Positions 1 through 8,705 of a DNA stretch of 49,283 bases are shown piece by piece. Source of the DNA: Piscirickettsiaceae bacterium (GTDB taxonomy: Bacteria; Pseudomonadota; Gammaproteobacteria; Nitrosococcales; Methylophagaceae); NCBI GenBank assembly GCA_024685995.1, contig JAIBDY010000015.1, positions 1 through 49,283 on the forward strand, given 5' to 3'. Position 1 is the first letter of the stretch, and the number at the start of each line of letters is the position of its first letter. The notes beneath the pieces are model-generated. The model ran no database searches. It was not told where the DNA came from and saw only the letters and a list, made by a program, of their open reading frames with translations. A program made the translations under genes and the position numbers.

Positions 1-959
1 ACTTCAATGCTTTGTCTTGCTGGAGCATTAACAGGGGTGGTCGGATCATCAAACGCACCATGCAGGCTAAATTTACAAGGCGTGCTTTTTGTCTCTGACT
101 GTGATCGATTATCTTGGTTTGCGTCCTTATTTAAAACGCCAGTTGAGTCCCATTGCTTGATTAAGATGACTTCATCACGCGTCATTTCTGGGTAATACCA
201 CCATTGATGTGATTGGTCGTATTTAGCAAAGTAATTTTCACCAATGCGATCATCATAATGGACCTCGAAAACGACAAGATCTTGTTGAGACATACTTTGT
301 CCATCGCATAAAGCAAGTGGCTGACTCAGAACGGGTGACGTAGCTATATTCCGCCAAACATTGATGATAGCAAAGCGTTTGTTTTGGTCGAGCACTTGGG
401 AAACAAAGTCCTGGTTCAATAGTGATTGGCCATCGGGCAAGATTGTTCTCAAAGTATCGTTTATTCGTGGTGGATTGGCGAGATCACGTAAACGCTGTGG
501 AGCACTAACGAAGGTGTAGTCACCATGAACAAAATGAATCGGTTGCTGGACTTGTTGTCCACCATTAATTTTTTTTTGTGGTGCTCGCTTTTGAGCGGAT
601 CGAAGGTTATGGTCAAATGCAAAAACCTGTGCTGCACCAGTGGCCTGTTGCACAATATATTCACATTCAGGGTAGTAGTTGCGTAACACGTGTTGTTGAT
701 CAAAAAAGTTTAATGCACTGTCTTGCAAGGGGTGGCAGAAAAGTTCGAACCCGGCCGTGTCTAATCGCAACTTGGTCGGTGCATCATCATGTCGCCCGTT
801 ACTGATCACAACATTGCGCTGTTCCATTTCCGTACCATGGAAAGGACCATCGTTGCCATCAATATCCCGGTGAGCAAACACTTTACCATTGCGATAAAGT
901 GACGATGTTATCGAAGGGGCTAAATAGTTCATTTGTGCGATAAGATATTGATTCGTCAT
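1..959 (-). CDS. CmcJ/NvfI-family putative Fe(II)/2-oxoglutarate dioxygenase, 3' end off the window
   Basis: The minus-strand reading frame opens at the ATG at 959 and stays open for 319 codons to the window edge, so the stop lies outside. An AAGGTG Shine-Dalgarno (967-972) precedes the start. Landmarks resemble the CmcJ/AsaB/NvfI family: FDHNLR (residues 115-120), VHGDYT (144-149), FAIINVWRN (196-204), SHQWWYYPEM (250-259), DEVILIK (262-268) and SLHGAFDDP (298-306). The last visible residues, ARQSIE, resemble the usual family C-terminus, so probably only about ten residues are missing. H145-x-D147 with a later His (H251 or H300) is a plausible iron-binding triad; this is inference. The family oxidises secondary metabolites in fungi and actinomycetes, and bacterial substrates are mostly unknown. 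The gene lies 221 bp downstream of dcmA with a hairpin between, so it is probably a separate unit. The family call is fairly firm; the substrate is unknown. Confidence 0.75.
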   Translation of the reverse strand, partial: MTNQYLIAQMNYLAPSITSSLYRNGKVFAHRDIDGNDGPFHGTEMEQRNVVISNGRHDDAPTKLRLDTAGFELFCHPLQDSALNFFDQQHVLRNYYPECEYIVQQATGAAQVFAFDHNLRSAQKRAPQKKINGGQQVQQPIHFVHGDYTFVSAPQRLRDLANPPRINDTLRTILPDGQSLLNQDFVSQVLDQNKRFAIINVWRNIATSPVLSQPLALCDGQSMSQQDLVVFEVHYDDRIGENYFAKYDQSHQWWYYPEMTRDEVILIKQWDSTGVLNKDANQDNRSQSETKSTPCKFSLHGAFDDPTTPVNAPARQSIE

Positions 960-1104
960 TTTTCTACACCTTACTATTGCCAAAGCCTTGTTGCATTGGC
1001 GAAGTAATCTGAACGCGAGATGACTACATCTGAGCTCTACATTGAGGCATCATCATTGCTATCTCTAGTCGGATCATGTTCTAAGTTAAGTTGATTAAAC
1101 GTCG

Positions 1105-1141
1105 GCTAAAAATCACGATCATGATGACCGTGATTTTTAGC
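1105..1141 (-). terminator. Hairpin between dcmA and the dioxygenase gene
   Basis: A perfect 13-bp stem (GCTAAAAATCACG at 1105-1117, complement at 1129-1141) encloses an 11-nt loop. Read on the minus strand, its 3' arm ends in a T-rich stretch, so it probably terminates dcmA transcription. No long free T-run follows, so termination may be incomplete. Confidence 0.6.
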
Positions 1142-1180
1142 GTCGTTGTTATTTAGCATGGTGGTCGATTAAGGTGATAA

Positions 1181-1984
1181 TTAACCATGTTGTGTCACAT
1201 AAGAATCATCGTCACCAGCATGGGTGATGCCATGATTATTACCACTATAGACTTCAGTCCCTTTGAGAACGGCAGTTTTACGTTTAAAGTCAAATTTCAC
1301 GCCATCATCGAGTACTTTTTTGACGTTTTCATACTGCCATGTACTCACCGTTTTCGCATGCGGGCGCGCCAACATTCGATCAAACCACGCTTTGACTTTG
1401 GGATGACTTTGCCAAATTGAATCGGGAATAATTCTGCCAGCATCATGAGAAACCAAATCTTGACTAGCTGCAATATCGGGGTAGCTAATGGTATCGCCGC
1501 AAAGAAATTCATTGTCTTTGAGCCAGTAATTTTCTAGGACATCAAATGCTTCATAAAGTAAGAAGCGACCACGTTTGATTTCCGCTGTAAAGTCTTTGTC
1601 ATACCCATAGATCATGGGGGCAAAAATCGTCCAATGGAAAGCACCGCCGCCTAAACGAAGGGTGTAGGCATACCAATTCATAAACTGTTGAATATGACCG
1701 CGTTCTTGTGGGTTAGAGCCCCACCAATGCGCAGGGCAATTAAATTTATCGCTAATGTAATAGGCAATGGCAGCACTTTCCCAGATAACGAAGTCGCCAT
1801 CGACAAGAATAGGGACTTGCCCTGTTGGGTTATATTTTTCTCTGAATGCTGGTTGCTCGTTGATATCCGTAGTGATATCAATAATTTCTTCTTCGAAAGG
1901 AATATTATTCTCAAGCAAAAATTGTTGTGCTGCTCGGCAGGGTTGAGAGGCGGGATGGTGAAGGTAACGTAACGTTGTGCTCAT
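1181..1984 (-). CDS. dcmA: Dichloromethane dehalogenase (glutathione S-transferase), DcmA type
   Basis: DcmA converts dichloromethane with glutathione to formaldehyde and two HCl, through S-chloromethyl glutathione, in the cytoplasm. The 267-residue length equals what I recall for the Methylophilus DM11 enzyme. The match runs end to end: RYLHHPASQPCR at 6-17, the GSH-site NPTGQVPILVDG at 52-63, the W-E-S of the beta-sheet edge at 68-70, LGGGAFHW at 111-118, APMIYGYDKDF at 122-132, and a tail with KTAVLKGTEVYSG and a terminal VTQHG. Ser13 corresponds to catalytic Ser12 of mature DM11 numbering. His117 and Trp118 correspond to residues 116/117 discussed for DcmA. This similarity is far closer than to general theta-class GSTs. 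AGGAG (1991-1995) lies 6 nt before the ATG. No dcmR regulator is visible nearby. The orthology call rests on memory of the DM11 sequence, not a computed alignment. Confidence 0.9.
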   Translation of the reverse strand: MSTTLRYLHHPASQPCRAAQQFLLENNIPFEEEIIDITTDINEQPAFREKYNPTGQVPILVDGDFVIWESAAIAYYISDKFNCPAHWWGSNPQERGHIQQFMNWYAYTLRLGGGAFHWTIFAPMIYGYDKDFTAEIKRGRFLLYEAFDVLENYWLKDNEFLCGDTISYPDIAASQDLVSHDAGRIIPDSIWQSHPKVKAWFDRMLARPHAKTVSTWQYENVKKVLDDGVKFDFKRKTAVLKGTEVYSGNNHGITHAGDDDSYVTQHG

Positions 1985-2001
1985 AGTAAACTCCTAAATT
2001 T

Positions 2002-2015
2002 ATGATAATTATCAT
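2002..2015. promoter_or_regulatory. 14-bp palindrome just upstream of the dcmA ribosome binding site
   Basis: ATGATAATTATCAT is a perfect palindrome ending 7 bp before the dcmA AGGAG. It resembles a Fur-box half pattern (GATAAT) but is shorter than a full 19-bp Fur box. Its position suits an operator or an mRNA structure controlling dcmA. Confidence 0.4.
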
Positions 2016-2079
2016 TTTTATATTGAATCAAGTCTGCTCTTCCACGAACAAATTGATTACTTAGGTATACATTGGCTTA

Positions 2080-2099
2080 CATGGTTATACATAACCATG
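2080..2099. promoter_or_regulatory. 20-bp inverted repeat upstream of dcmA
   Basis: Perfect 9-bp arms CATGGTTAT and ATAACCATG are separated by AC. It lies 96-115 bp upstream of the dcmA start. The size and symmetry suit a dimeric regulator. The regulator is unknown. Confidence 0.5.
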
Positions 2100-2108
2100 A
2101 TTTAAACT

Positions 2109-2122
2109 GTACAATATTGTAC
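2109..2122. promoter_or_regulatory. 14-bp palindrome upstream of dcmA
   Basis: GTACAATATTGTAC is perfectly symmetrical and begins 10 bp beyond the 20-bp inverted repeat. Together with the two other palindromes it fills much of 1985-2289. The rest of that 305-bp gap (2123-2289) shows no gene or recognisable element. Confidence 0.4.
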
Positions 2123-2289
2123 GTTATCAATCAAATATTTTTTGTGATTAGCTTTGTATAGGTATGCTGGGTGTGGTAACGGGCTCTCATTACCTTGCTG
2201 CAGTTATTGATGGCACTGTCTAGTTGTCAGGGATGGCTAATTTTAGCTATCGAGTGATATTTACGAACAGATTGGGCGATTGTAGGTGG

Positions 2290-2547
2290 TTACTGTTCAT
2301 TGTTGACGCGACATTCTGCGTCTTTAATCTGTTGAAACATCTTGAGCGCTGAATAGGTAGAGACGCAATAAGGTACGAGGTAGGTGATAATGATCTGGTA
2401 GATGTTTTCGTGGCTCAAGGTGCCATGAACTATATTCGGGCCATGGTTGATCAGTGCCAAGATAGTTCCTACAACAAGTGCAACTCTAGCTGCGGTCATC
2501 ATGACTTCTTTTGAAAATGCTACGGTGAAGTGTTTTCTGAGCATCAT
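2290..2547 (-). CDS. nrtS: NrtS-type small nitrate/nitrite transporter
   Basis: This small membrane protein is 85 residues long from the ATG at 2547. It resembles NrtS, a two-helix nitrate/nitrite transporter family. A first hydrophobic segment (RVALVVGTILALINHGP, about residues 21-37) is followed by the family-typical ITYLVPYCVSTYSA (about 54-67). GAGAGGGG (2552-2559) sits just before two adjacent ATGs (2547 and 2544), which decides this start. An in-frame upstream ATG at 2568 would put the Shine-Dalgarno inside the gene. It reads away from the nir/nas operon but is close to it, consistent with a role in nitrate uptake. The family call rests on motif memory. No terminator was found after it. 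Confidence 0.75.
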   Translation of the reverse strand: MMLRKHFTVAFSKEVMMTAARVALVVGTILALINHGPNIVHGTLSHENIYQIIITYLVPYCVSTYSALKMFQQIKDAECRVNNEQ

Positions 2548-2673
2548 TAAACCCCTCTCAAGACCCAAATTTGTTTAGGTTGCCTCTGTCACGCTTGCCC
2601 AGTTAATACCGTTATTTCCTATAAGCCAGTGAGCGATACGTAACGTTGACAAAGCTAGCTTTTAACTCAATAT

Positions 2674-2712
2674 AAAGTATACTTTTGATGGCTATTGTAT
2701 ATACTTGTATAT
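2674..2712. promoter_or_regulatory. Two AT-rich palindromes between nrtS and the 2814 gene
   Basis: AAAGTATACTTT (2674-2685) is a perfect 12-bp palindrome. ATATAC-TT-GTATAT (2699-2712) is a 6-bp-arm inverted repeat 13 bp further on. Both contain a TATACTT core and lie in the divergent region between nrtS (minus) and the 2814 gene (plus). They could be operators; no regulator is assigned. Confidence 0.35.
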
Positions 2713-2813
2713 GTTAAGTGCAAGTGCTTAGTGGGTGTTGACCGATGAGCAGGCATGTTCAAGGTTGCTCTATCGCTAGTATTTACTGCCGATGACTAGA
2801 CAAAGGAAGAATA

Positions 2814-3350
2814 ATGATGACATCAATATCGAATATATTACCGTCTTATCCTGCTTCAGGTCCGCATCCAGATTACCGAGACAAGCTGATGCTGTTTGGC
2901 CAGTTTGAAGGTATCTGGGATGTTGCGATTACTTTCTATGACAATGCTGGAAATCTGATTTTTGATGGTCAAGGTGTTTGGGAGTTTGCATGGGTTATGG
3001 ATGGTCGCGTATTACAGGATGTCTTAACCTTTCCAGATTTGCACGATTCGAGTGTGACCGCTCCAGGCAAGCGAAATATCGGCACGTCTCTCCGCCACTA
3101 TGATCCTAAAACGGATAGTTGGCGAGTCGTGTGGATTGGCGCATCGAGTGGCAATCTTTGCTTTTTAACAGCAAGACAAGAGGGTGCCAATTTATTGATC
3201 GAAAGAAATGATCCCGGTATGTCATTGTTGCGATGGCAGTTCACGGATATCACTGAAACGCAATTTCGTTGGACGGGACACTTTTCAACTGATGGCGGTA
3301 AAACATGGCTATTAGAGCAAGAGATGCACGCGACTAAACGGCTGTCGTAA
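2814..3350 (+). CDS. Unassigned lipocalin-like (DUF1579-like) protein
   Basis: The protein has 178 residues and no signal peptide or membrane segment. It is beta-rich, with alternating strands such as GIWDVAITFYDNAG, GVWEFAWVMDGRVLQDV and the late FSTDGGKTWLLEQEM. The 'G.W.....' opening and the 'DGRVLQ...' segment recall calycin/DUF1579-type barrels that bind small hydrophobic ligands, but this is only a fold-level guess. AAGGAAGA precedes ATG 2814; the adjacent ATG 2817 is equally possible. It stands between the dcmA/nrtS segment and the nitrate operon, with its own upstream region (2569-2813). I do not recognise its function. Confidence 0.6.
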   Translation: MMTSISNILPSYPASGPHPDYRDKLMLFGQFEGIWDVAITFYDNAGNLIFDGQGVWEFAWVMDGRVLQDVLTFPDLHDSSVTAPGKRNIGTSLRHYDPKTDSWRVVWIGASSGNLCFLTARQEGANLLIERNDPGMSLLRWQFTDITETQFRWTGHFSTDGGKTWLLEQEMHATKRLS

Positions 3351-6563: not shown

Positions 6564-7471
6564 GCCTGAACTATTATATTGCCGATGTATTCACTAATAC
6601 GGTGTTTTCTGGTGCTCAAATTGCGGTGTTTCCGAACGCTGAAGCGTTAAGTGCTGAACAAATGCAATTGATTGCACGTGAGCTGAACTTATCTGAAACG
6701 GTGTTTGTGACCAATCCTGATAATACGTCGAGCGCGCGGACGATGCGGGTGTTCTCACCCATCGCCGAGATCGATTTTGCTGGTCACCCAATTATTGCGA
6801 CTGCGTTTGTATTAGCGGAAAGTGGCGATATTGAATTAACCGCACCTCATACCAAGCTGACATTTCGCCAAAATGTTGGTGAGTTTGATGTTAACGTGTC
6901 GGCCGACAATGGCAACGTGACATTGGTGCAGTTTTCTCAAAAAGTGACATCGGTGATTGATAGGTTCACGCCTTCTAACATTGAACTGGCCGAGATATTA
7001 TCACTTGATGTCGCTGATCTTGACCATAAACGATACAGTACGCGCTTGGTGTCTTGCGGTTTTCCTTATCTGATTGTACCGGTGTGGCGTTATGAGTCCG
7101 TACGCAAAGCCAAATTTAACTTTGCGGCTTGGAGTCAATCTGCTGCACCGCAAACAGCAGCACAAGAAATTTTATTGTTCTCGCCCAAAACACCATTTCA
7201 AGATAGTAACTTTAATGCTCGATTATTGGGCCCCAATATCGGTCCTTTAGAAGATCCACCGGTAGGGAGCGCCATGCCAGCCTTCGCCTCTTATCTATGT
7301 TCTTTTGATTTCACACAGGTGGGGACGCATATCTTTGCAGTGGATCGTGGGGATGCGGTGAATCGTCGTAGTGTACTTAACCTTGAAATGGATCATAAAC
7401 GCCAAGCCGCATTGACCTTGCGTATTGGAGGTGAAGCGGTATTGGTCGCTAAAGGGCAAATGGTTCTTTGA
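6560..7471 (+). CDS. PhzF-family isomerase/epimerase-like protein
   Basis: The protein has 303 residues with the two-lobed diaminopimelate-epimerase fold of the PhzF family. Visible landmarks are YYIADVFTNTVFSGAQIAVF (5-24), ARELNLSETVFV (39-50) with Glu46 at the position of the PhzF catalytic Glu45, the EIDFAGHP motif near 72-79, and a late GSAMPAF segment near 235-241. The overall length is typical. In phenazine producers PhzF isomerises trans-2,3-dihydro-3-hydroxyanthranilate, but most family members have unknown substrates. No other phenazine gene is present. The ATG overlaps the nirD stop (ATGA), so it is made with nitrite reductase. The C-terminal VDRGDAVNRRSVLNLEM differs somewhat from the usual 'Q-G-...-GRPS' ending. 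Family is confident; role is unknown. Confidence 0.85.
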   Translation: MSLNYYIADVFTNTVFSGAQIAVFPNAEALSAEQMQLIARELNLSETVFVTNPDNTSSARTMRVFSPIAEIDFAGHPIIATAFVLAESGDIELTAPHTKLTFRQNVGEFDVNVSADNGNVTLVQFSQKVTSVIDRFTPSNIELAEILSLDVADLDHKRYSTRLVSCGFPYLIVPVWRYESVRKAKFNFAAWSQSAAPQTAAQEILLFSPKTPFQDSNFNARLLGPNIGPLEDPPVGSAMPAFASYLCSFDFTQVGTHIFAVDRGDAVNRRSVLNLEMDHKRQAALTLRIGGEAVLVAKGQMVL

Positions 7472-7478
7472 ATTAGTC

Positions 7479-8705
7479 ATGAGAGAAAAATTAGTCCTGA
7501 TCGGTAATGGTATGGCCGGCATGCGTACCATTGATGAGCTATTGAAACTGGCGCCTGACAAATACCAAATTACGGTGTTTGGTGCTGAACCACATGGCAA
7601 TTACAACCGTATTATGCTGTCACCGGTATTGGCGGGCGATAAAACCATTGATGATATTATTATTAATGATTTGCAGTGGTATGAAGATAATCATATTCAC
7701 TTGCTGACCAATACCACGGTGACGGAGATTGATCGTGTTCAACGCAAAGTCATTGCCGATGACGGGACAGAAGTTGATTACGACCGCTTGATACTGGCGA
7801 CTGGGTCAAATCCCGTCATGTTGTCTGTCCCAGGAAGTGGCTTAGAAGGTGTTATTAGCTTTCGTGATATCAATGACGTCAATACCATGATCAATACGGC
7901 GAAAACGCATCACAAAGCGGTAGTAATTGGTGGTGGTTTATTAGGCTTGGAAGCGGCAAATGGCTTGATGCAACAAGGGATGGAGGTGACCGTTGTGCAT
8001 CGAAGTGACACCTTAATGAATCAACAGTTGGATAAAACAGCGGCTGATTTAATGCGGGTTGAGCTAGAAGCAAAAGGCCTTAAGTTTTTGATGCGTCATA
8101 GTACACAGGCTTTCTTGGGACACGACCGGGTAGAAAAAGTGCAGTTTGATGATGGTAGCGAGATTGCTGCTGACTTGGTTGTGATGGCCATTGGTGTTAG
8201 ACCTAATATTGCCTTAGCTGAAAAGTCTGGTATTCAATGTGAGCGCGGCATCTTGGTGAATGATACCCTACAGACTTATACGCCGACGATTTATGCTGTG
8301 GGTGAGTGCGTGCAACATCGTCAGCAAACATTTGGCTTAGTCGCGCCGTTATTTGAGCAAGCCAAAGTCTGTGCAAACCATTTGGCCGAAATAGGTTTTG
8401 CGATGTATATGACGCCAGTGACCGCTACCCAACTCAAAGTGACGGGTATTGATTTGTTTTCTGCTGGTGATTATCAAGGGAATGCCAATAGCCAAGTGAT
8501 CGTCTACTCTGATCCACAGCGTTATCACTACAAAAAGCTGGTGATTGAAGACCATAAGATCGTCGGCATCGTTCTTTATGGTGCGATCGTCGATGGCCGA
8601 TGGTACTTTTCTTTACTGAATTCAAAACAAGATATCTCACCTATCCGTGACACCTTGGTGTTTGGACAGCAATATTGTGAACCGGAACAGGTAACCTCTT
8701 CATGA
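7479..8705 (+). CDS. nasC: FAD/NAD(P)-dependent electron-transfer subunit of assimilatory nitrate reductase
   Basis: The 408-residue protein from ATG 7479 has FAD motif VLIGNGMAGMRT (5-16), NAD motif VVIGGGLLGLEAANGL near 148-163, and the FAD-closing AVGECVQH near 273-280. It resembles the N-terminal half of NirB but has no Fe-S or siroheme part. In Klebsiella NasC passes electrons from NADH to NasA; the same role fits because nasA overlaps its stop (ATGA). The start at 7479 is chosen because MREKLVLIGNGMAG aligns with the family N-terminus; an upstream in-frame ATG at 7425 lies inside phzF. No clear Shine-Dalgarno is seen, so coupling to phzF (7-bp gap) is likely. Confidence 0.88.
   Translation: MREKLVLIGNGMAGMRTIDELLKLAPDKYQITVFGAEPHGNYNRIMLSPVLAGDKTIDDIIINDLQWYEDNHIHLLTNTTVTEIDRVQRKVIADDGTEVDYDRLILATGSNPVMLSVPGSGLEGVISFRDINDVNTMINTAKTHHKAVVIGGGLLGLEAANGLMQQGMEVTVVHRSDTLMNQQLDKTAADLMRVELEAKGLKFLMRHSTQAFLGHDRVEKVQFDDGSEIAADLVVMAIGVRPNIALAEKSGIQCERGILVNDTLQTYTPTIYAVGECVQHRQQTFGLVAPLFEQAKVCANHLAEIGFAMYMTPVTATQLKVTGIDLFSAGDYQGNANSQVIVYSDPQRYHYKKLVIEDHKIVGIVLYGAIVDGRWYFSLLNSKQDISPIRDTLVFGQQYCEPEQVTSS

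What the first reader, a model, noticed from the sequence alone, without database searches (positions are those of the whole stretch)
1181..1984. DM11-type dichloromethane dehalogenase next to a nitrate assimilation locus
The protein has the exact length and the end-to-end motif set I recall for Methylophilus DM11 DcmA, including the unusual C-terminal tail, rather than general GST similarity. No dcmR is visible nearby, so the context seems to differ from the terrestrial strains. It would imply dichloromethane (or related dihalomethane) turnover in this organism.
Basis: partly seen in the sequence, partly recalled or inferred. Interest (0 to 1): 0.75.

Follow-up and report, generated by a model that had tools for sequence, protein, structure and literature searches.

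The report
Dichloromethane dehalogenase cluster, probably marine methylotroph
A bacterium from a methylotroph family carries a dichloromethane-dehalogenase-type enzyme together with likely partner and sensor genes, which hints at a natural reservoir for genes known from dichloromethane-degrading strains.

Summary
In detail: an intact 267-aa GST is encoded at 1984..1181, minus strand, beside nitrate-assimilation genes. It matches published DcmA peptides of Hyphomicrobium MC8b at 101/164 residues in register; six other GSTs reach 27-31% as best unregistered matches (window protein 61%). A split reading frame links this contig to C27, which carries a Xi-class GST, a GFA-like protein and a DcmR-type HTH+MEDS regulator, about 2.6 kb past dcmA. 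A coral-skeleton MAG (by its sample name; DcmA 80% identical) repeats dcmA-dcmB-XiGST, adds a ClC chloride transporter, and has its DcmR-like gene about 4.3 kb away. The host has two fae genes, in a family with RuMP and PQQ-dehydrogenase genes. Best reading: an inducible chromosomal dihalomethane-dehalogenation cluster. Activity, substrate and growth use are inferred. It is rare: found only in the own genome among 57 family genomes, and only in the coral MAG among 371 relatives of that MAG.

The parts
1181..1984 (-). dcmA-like gene: 267-aa protein of the DcmA family, probable GSH-dependent dihalomethane dehalogenase
   Evidence: 80% identical to L004:2270-3076
1..983 (-). dcmB-like gene, CmcJ/NvfI family oxidoreductase (probable Fe(II)/2-oxoglutarate oxygenase). 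Start TTG at 983 or ATG at 959; the last residues appear to lie on contig C27 of the same genome
   Evidence: NF041278 E=5.4e-64; 57% identical to the gene after dcmA in L004; H153-x-D155 and H259 motif; missing C-terminus found in frame on the C27 end
1985..2289 (-). dcmA upstream region: 9-bp-arm palindrome at 2080-2099 (possible operator) and a weak promoter-like pair TTGATT (2134-2129) / TACAGT (ending 2106) giving a predicted 115-nt leader
   Evidence: the strict promoter scan does not list it and finds promoter-like sites at chance level
2290..2568 (-). nrtS, small nitrate/nitrite transporter; neighbour, probably unrelated to dehalogenation
   Evidence: NF038050 over cut-off
2814..3350 (+). 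178-aa protein of no known family; its relative (67%) lies directly upstream of dcmA in L004, so it is a candidate accessory gene

Best explanation
The gene encodes a DcmA-family, theta-like glutathione transferase. Its serine site activates GSH to attack a dihalomethane (dichloromethane, or marine bromo analogues); the S-halomethyl-GSH formed hydrolyses to formaldehyde, two halides and free GSH. It heads a chromosomal, inducible dcm-type cluster: dcmA, dcmB (CmcJ/NvfI-type oxygenase), a Xi-class GST, a GFA-like protein and an HTH+MEDS DcmR-type sensor. Formaldehyde would enter the host's Fae-linked C1 pathway. Shown here: the sequences, the gene linkage (through split frames at contig ends) and its recurrence in a second genome. 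Inferred: catalysis, substrate, induction, formaldehyde use, and the roles of DcmB and the Xi GST.
For: (1) 101/164 residues identical in register to peptides of a DcmA strongly induced in DCM-grown cells; best unregistered match 61% against 27-31% in six other GSTs. (2) The next gene is CmcJ/NvfI family; published DcmB's closest annotated relative is a cephalosporin-biosynthesis hydroxylation/methyl-transfer protein. (3) HTH_17+MEDS regulator (PF14417 E=1e-31) on contig C27, whose end supplies the missing dcmB C-terminus in frame. MEDS occurs in 3 of 57 family genomes. (4) Second genome G080: dcmA 80%, dcmB 57%, DcmR-like 58%, Xi GST 60%, the regulator linked through a split selB. (5) In G080 a ClC chloride transporter follows; chloride export limits growth on DCM and adding clcA to dcmA raised fitness. 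(6) Two fae genes over cut-off in G000, one in G080; formylmethanofuran dehydrogenase A on the same contig as the dcmR-like gene in G080.
Against: No relative of G080's ClC was found in G000 at E<=1e-10. No Hps, PQQ alcohol dehydrogenase or TIGR02818 formaldehyde dehydrogenase reaches cut-off in G000, although it is only 82% complete. The cluster is rare even among kin. MEDS regulators also sit in an epoxyethane cluster. A dcmC gene was not identified. The contig joins are inferred from split frames, not read through. No DM4 or DM11 sequence was available.
Confidence: 0.78

Rival explanations
1. It is a dihalomethane dehalogenase, but used for detoxification or co-metabolism of natural bromo/iodo-methanes rather than growth on DCM (this overlaps with the best explanation, which leaves the use open).
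For: In G000 no relative of G080's ClC, and no Hps or PQQ methanol dehydrogenase over cut-off, were found. A Methylophaga-related type dominated bromoform+methanol seawater incubations in which CH2Br2 rose. dcmA alone was not enough for efficient growth in Methylobacterium.
Against: An accompanying specific-looking regulator and dcmB, and fae/H4MPT genes that could use the formaldehyde. The bromoform experiment cannot separate the methanol effect.
Confidence: 0.35
2. It is an ordinary theta-like GST for another electrophile (an epoxide, for instance) that merely resembles DcmA, with a MEDS regulator of the kind seen in an epoxyethane cluster.
For: A MEDS+HTH regulator occurs in an epoxyethane cluster; theta-class GSTs are the best solved-structure matches (E=2.4e-25 to 1.5e-23).
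Against: 101/164 identity to DcmA peptides in register, including the tail RKTAVLK; other GSTs 27-31% as best unregistered match; dcmB-type neighbour in both genomes; ClC chloride transporter in one.
Confidence: 0.1
3. The window contig is misbinned, or the gene was recently imported from a DCM-adapted terrestrial strain.
For: Not found in the other 56 family genomes searched; the genome is a fragmented 82%-complete assembly.
Against: dcmA G+C 43% against 44% for the window. The adjoining contig carries core genes (dnaE-, pyrG-, eno-like by reading; AmpD by profile). Divergence of 20% from the coral MAG and about 38% from MC8b peptides does not fit a recent import from the 96-99% identical alphaproteobacterial group.
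Confidence: 0.07

Closest known systems
DcmA of Methylophilus sp. DM11
   Same: Tyr/Ser register at 6/12; published 122-nt dcmA leader compares with a predicted 122 nt in G080 and 115 nt in the window
DcmA and dcmRABC of Hyphomicrobium MC8b, GJ21 and Methylorubrum extorquens DM4
   Same: DcmA sequence family; CmcJ-related gene after dcmA; HTH+MEDS regulator linked; MC8b also lacks flanking transposases
   Different: About 62% identity to MC8b peptides; regulator lies beyond dcmB and convergent instead of divergent from dcmA; Xi GST and GFA-like genes added; no dcmC identified
Synthetic dcmA+clcA cassette (eLife 2014, PMC4271186, passages seen)
   Same: In G080 a ClC transporter gene lies co-linear, third gene after dcmA
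   Different: Natural; no relative of that ClC found in the window's own genome
Glutathionyl-hydroquinone reductases (Xi GST, YqjG)
   Same: The third gene of the cluster matches them by sequence (E down to 1.5e-40)
   Different: Substrate unknown; an association with dcm genes was not met in the passages I saw

Membership tests
DcmA (GSH-dependent dichloromethane dehalogenase) | GST N- and C-terminal domains | tested here: met
   PF02798 40.6 bits, PF00043 37.7 bits, both over cut-off
DcmA (GSH-dependent dichloromethane dehalogenase) | Catalytic serine in the register of DM11 Ser12, with Tyr6 | tested here: met
   Tyr7 and Ser13 counted from Met; DM11 residues from a paper title in a reference list; the one-residue offset by Met removal is assumed
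DcmA (GSH-dependent dichloromethane dehalogenase) | Sequence match to a DCM-induced DcmA well above other GSTs | tested here: met
   101/164 with MC8b peptides in register; best unregistered match 61% against 27-31% in six other GSTs (the short partial hits L009 and L010 were not used)
DcmA (GSH-dependent dichloromethane dehalogenase) | C-terminal tail with RKTAVLK | tested here: met
   7/7 at residues 235-241
DcmA (GSH-dependent dichloromethane dehalogenase) | Placement in a tree with full-length DM4, DM11 and MC8b DcmA | not testable with these tools
   None of these sequences was met: plasmid records gave only matches under 60%, and the one genome scan looked for exact short peptides of the window protein, so it could miss them
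DcmA (GSH-dependent dichloromethane dehalogenase) | Activity with dichloromethane | not testable with these tools
   needs an assay
dcmRABC islet | CmcJ-related gene (dcmB) directly downstream of dcmA | tested here: met
   NF041278 in both genomes; orthology to DcmB itself rests on the description in PMC7760279
dcmRABC islet | HTH+MEDS regulator (dcmR) in the cluster | tested here: met
   HTH_17 + MEDS at C27:33440-34237, on the contig inferred to adjoin; same in G080. DcmR itself was not held for comparison
dcmRABC islet | dcmR divergent from dcmA, shared intergenic region | tested here: not met
   Regulator is convergent and past the Xi GST in G000, and upstream in the same direction in G080
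dcmRABC islet | dcmC present | tested here: inconclusive
   No DcmC sequence held; the 178-aa conserved neighbour is near DcmC's 184 residues in size but in another position
dcmRABC islet | Flanking insertion sequences | tested here: inconclusive
   No transposase among the cluster genes scanned, but not every ORF was scanned; MC8b lacks them too

The most novel reading that the evidence does not exclude
Marine gammaproteobacterial methylotrophs hold the natural, pre-industrial dcm system: a chromosomal cassette of dehalogenase, oxygenase, Xi-class glutathione-conjugate reductase, MEDS sensor and, in the coral-skeleton lineage, a built-in chloride exporter. It evolved for natural dihalomethanes (CH2Br2, CH2BrCl, CH2Cl2), and DM11-type dcmA was drawn from it. 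The Xi GST would repair or salvage the genotoxic S-halomethyl-glutathione by-product.
Probability: 0.3. Interest if true: 0.72.

Novelty: new variant of a known kind. Interest (0 to 1): 0.58.

Why it matters
DcmA is described as the only growth-supporting DCM dehalogenase characterised at the molecular level. [quoted passage not shown] A divergent, chromosomal version with its own sensor in a methylotroph lineage, with a relative from coral skeleton, gives a concrete natural reservoir to test and a possible sink for short-lived halomethanes. The ClC gene beside dcmA in the coral MAG would be nature's own answer to the chloride problem found by experimental evolution. The Xi GST is a new candidate part of the pathway.

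Tried and rejected
Generic GST, FzlA and maleylacetoacetate isomerase: scores far below the NCBIfam cut-offs. 'No dcmR': rejected after the MEDS search of the two genomes. Recent mobile import: G+C fits the window. Formaldehyde use through TIGR02818 or Hps in G000: not found over cut-off. A MEDS protein in G033 (200-aa ORF) shows no HTH part by reading and was not counted as DcmR-like. The plasmid collection gave no match of 60% or more; the viral scan, by exact short peptides, confirmed none. Of seven loci confirmed in the genome scan only L004 is a close relative (81% best segment); the others are 26-40%. The published GATC(C/G)ATAGCCT motif was not searched for as such. AlphaFold2 models of DcmA and DcmB had mean pLDDT 33.7 and 30.2 from two-row alignments and were not used; no fold search was run. 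The leader-length match to DM11 was chosen after knowing the 122-nt value: 14/2000 (window) and 23/2000 (G080) shuffles give a site in the 112-132 nt range, but the strict promoter scan of window 1-3000 finds sites at chance level, 9 against a mean of 8.0, and does not list this one. Arms of at least 9 bp occur in 6/500 shuffles (window) and of at least 13 bp in 0/500 (G080); the two palindromes differ in sequence, so a shared operator is not shown.

Full report
WHAT IS THERE. The stretch 1181-1984 holds an intact 267-aa reading frame on the minus strand with an ATG start. It has GST N- and C-terminal domains. No NCBIfam model reaches its cut-off: the best hits, FzlA and others, lie far under. 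The best solved-structure matches are theta-class GSTs. The window is a whole contig, G000:C30, of a 1.84-Mb, 56-contig, 82%-complete genome; its base 1 is the contig end.

IS IT DcmA? I met no DM4 or DM11 DcmA in the collections searched, so I used the twelve DcmA peptides of Hyphomicrobium MC8b printed in PMC7760279 (passages; sections 25 and 13). These come from a protein highly induced on DCM. One peptide is known to have two residues swapped relative to the genome. In register, 101 of 164 peptide residues are identical in the window protein and 104 of 164 in its relative L004. As best unregistered matches the window protein gives 61% and L004 62% of 169, and the six other GSTs I used (L002, L003, L005-L008) 27-31% with scattered offsets; two short partial hits, L009 and L010, were not used. 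Two of the twelve peptides score no better than shuffled sequence in the window protein when taken alone, and a third (5/15) only within the shuffle range. The motifs SQPCR, WYAYTLRLGGGAFHW, LENYWL, RPHAK and the tail RKTAVLK are shared. Tyr7 and Ser13 (from Met) fit the DM11 paper title 'Ser12 but not Tyr6' if Met is removed (reference list only). The MC8b enzyme is numbered 9 higher at the N-terminus and 13 higher at the tail. So membership in the DcmA family is well supported; 'DM11-type' is consistent but not directly tested.

Downstream of dcmA, at 983..1, lies a CmcJ/NvfI-family oxidoreductase (E=5.4e-64). PMC7760279 reports that DcmB's closest annotated relative is a cephalosporin-biosynthesis protein of hydroxylation/methyl transfer, so this is very probably dcmB. 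It keeps a candidate H-x-D...H metal motif (that these are the ligands is recalled), and solved relatives are a 2-oxoglutarate dioxygenase and NvfI. The frame runs off base 1. The end of contig C27 of the same genome encodes CIVVFDA-stop on the strand needed, where the L004 relative ends CVALFDY-stop. Next on C27 in the same direction is a GST of the Xi class (C27:35594-34686; solved relatives E down to 1.5e-40), the same gene that follows dcmB in L004 (60% identity). Facing it are a GFA-like protein (C27:34294-34656, 26.4 bits, just over the cut-off of 24.3) and a 265-aa HTH_17+MEDS protein (C27:33440-34237, MEDS E=1e-31). MEDS is named after the DcmR sensory domain. If the contigs abut, the regulator ends about 2.6 kb from the end of dcmA.

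A SECOND GENOME. L004 is from MAG PL25a_bin.135. PL25a bins come from the skeleton of the coral Porites lutea (PMC9868349, listing and two passages; this bin itself is not named in the text, so its source is inferred from the name). On its plus strand lie a 176-aa protein (67% to window 2814-3350), dcmA (80%), dcmB (57%), Xi GST (60%) and a ClC chloride transporter (PF00654 E=2e-80). Its DcmR-like protein (58%) lies on contig C45. C45 ends and L004 starts inside a selB gene (profile positions 1-217 and 220-578 of 581), so if they abut the regulator is about 4.3 kb from dcmA. C45 also carries formylmethanofuran dehydrogenase A. Two genomes with different gene orders thus keep dcmA, dcmB, Xi GST and a dcmR-like gene together, which argues for one function. 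How closely the two genomes are related was not told by the tools.

HOST. Hps is over cut-off in 6 of 8 relatives tested (seven of the family, one of the order), PQQ alcohol dehydrogenases in 7 of 11 genomes and fae in 8 of 9, with two copies in G000. The family therefore looks methylotrophic; I infer Methylophagaceae from this and from genome sizes, without a named test. In G000 itself Hps, PQQ dehydrogenase and TIGR02818 formaldehyde dehydrogenase were not found over cut-off, nor a relative of G080's ClC; TIGR02818 was over cut-off in 0 of 5 genomes. Hps is also not over cut-off in G080. Incompleteness may explain some of this; a same-genus genome at 99% (G018) also lacks the PQQ dehydrogenase but has Hps and fae.

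RARITY. DcmA at E<=1e-20 occurs in 1 of 57 family genomes and 1 of 59 relatives (the sets overlap), in both cases the window's own genome. At E<=1e-40 it occurs in 1 of 371 relatives of G080, G080 itself. MEDS occurs in 3 of 57 family genomes: G000, G033 (no HTH by reading) and G072 (HTH remnant at a contig start, 55% complete, no DcmA found), and in 2 of 14 control genomes. The plasmid collection has 191 records with a match, all under 60% identity. The viral scan confirmed none.

MECHANISM. By established DcmA chemistry (family knowledge; product statement in PMC5585157, passages) DCM gives formaldehyde and two HCl. Fae and the H4MPT route would take the formaldehyde. Chloride export limits growth on DCM, and a dcmA+clcA plasmid gave higher fitness than dcmA alone in every strain tested (PMC4271186, passages); G080 has that pair naturally, G000 apparently not. 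The roles of the oxygenase and the Xi GST are guesses.

SUBSTRATE. DCM is formed naturally (passages). A Methylophaga-related type dominated bromoform-plus-methanol seawater incubations while CH2Br2 rose (PMC6594743, passages), but the methanol effect cannot be separated. I cannot choose between chloro- and bromomethanes.

NOVELTY. DcmA itself is known, and a dcmA annotation exists for a Binatota MAG (PMC8262859, passages). Searches with dichloromethane dehalogenase or dcmA plus marine, dichloromethane plus Methylophaga or coral and a looser mix with seawater showed no report of a dcm cluster in marine Gammaproteobacteria among the titles and abstract starts listed; some searches listed only 15 of 21, 10 of 18 and 20 of 232 papers, and the library holds open-licence papers only. 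I rate it a new variant of a known kind.

Noticed in passing
L030 (G072:C54) 2-721: A third DcmR-like HTH+MEDS gene, cut by the contig start, in a 55%-complete genome of the same family; no dcmA was found in that bin.
   Followed up: partly
window 2814-3350 and L004:1424-1954: A 176-178-aa protein without a family match over cut-off, 67% identical between the two dcm-bearing genomes and near dcmA in both; possible unrecognised dcm accessory gene.
   Followed up: partly
L004 1955-2269: A perfect 13-bp-arm inverted repeat directly before a promoter-like pair upstream of dcmA in G080 (0 of 500 shuffles have arms as long).
   Followed up: partly
window 7425-8705: A FAD reductase resembling the N-terminal half of NirB (445 bits, under the full-length cut-off) directly before the nitrate-reductase-like gene.
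   Followed up: no
L014 4228-9170 (G080:C45): Formylmethanofuran dehydrogenase region (subunit A by profile, others by reading) about 8 kb from the DcmR-like gene, with selenocysteine genes also on the contig (selB by profile, others by reading).
   Followed up: partly
G007:C1, G063:C1: PQQ alcohol dehydrogenase frames with internal stop codons in two relatives, possibly decaying genes.
   Followed up: no
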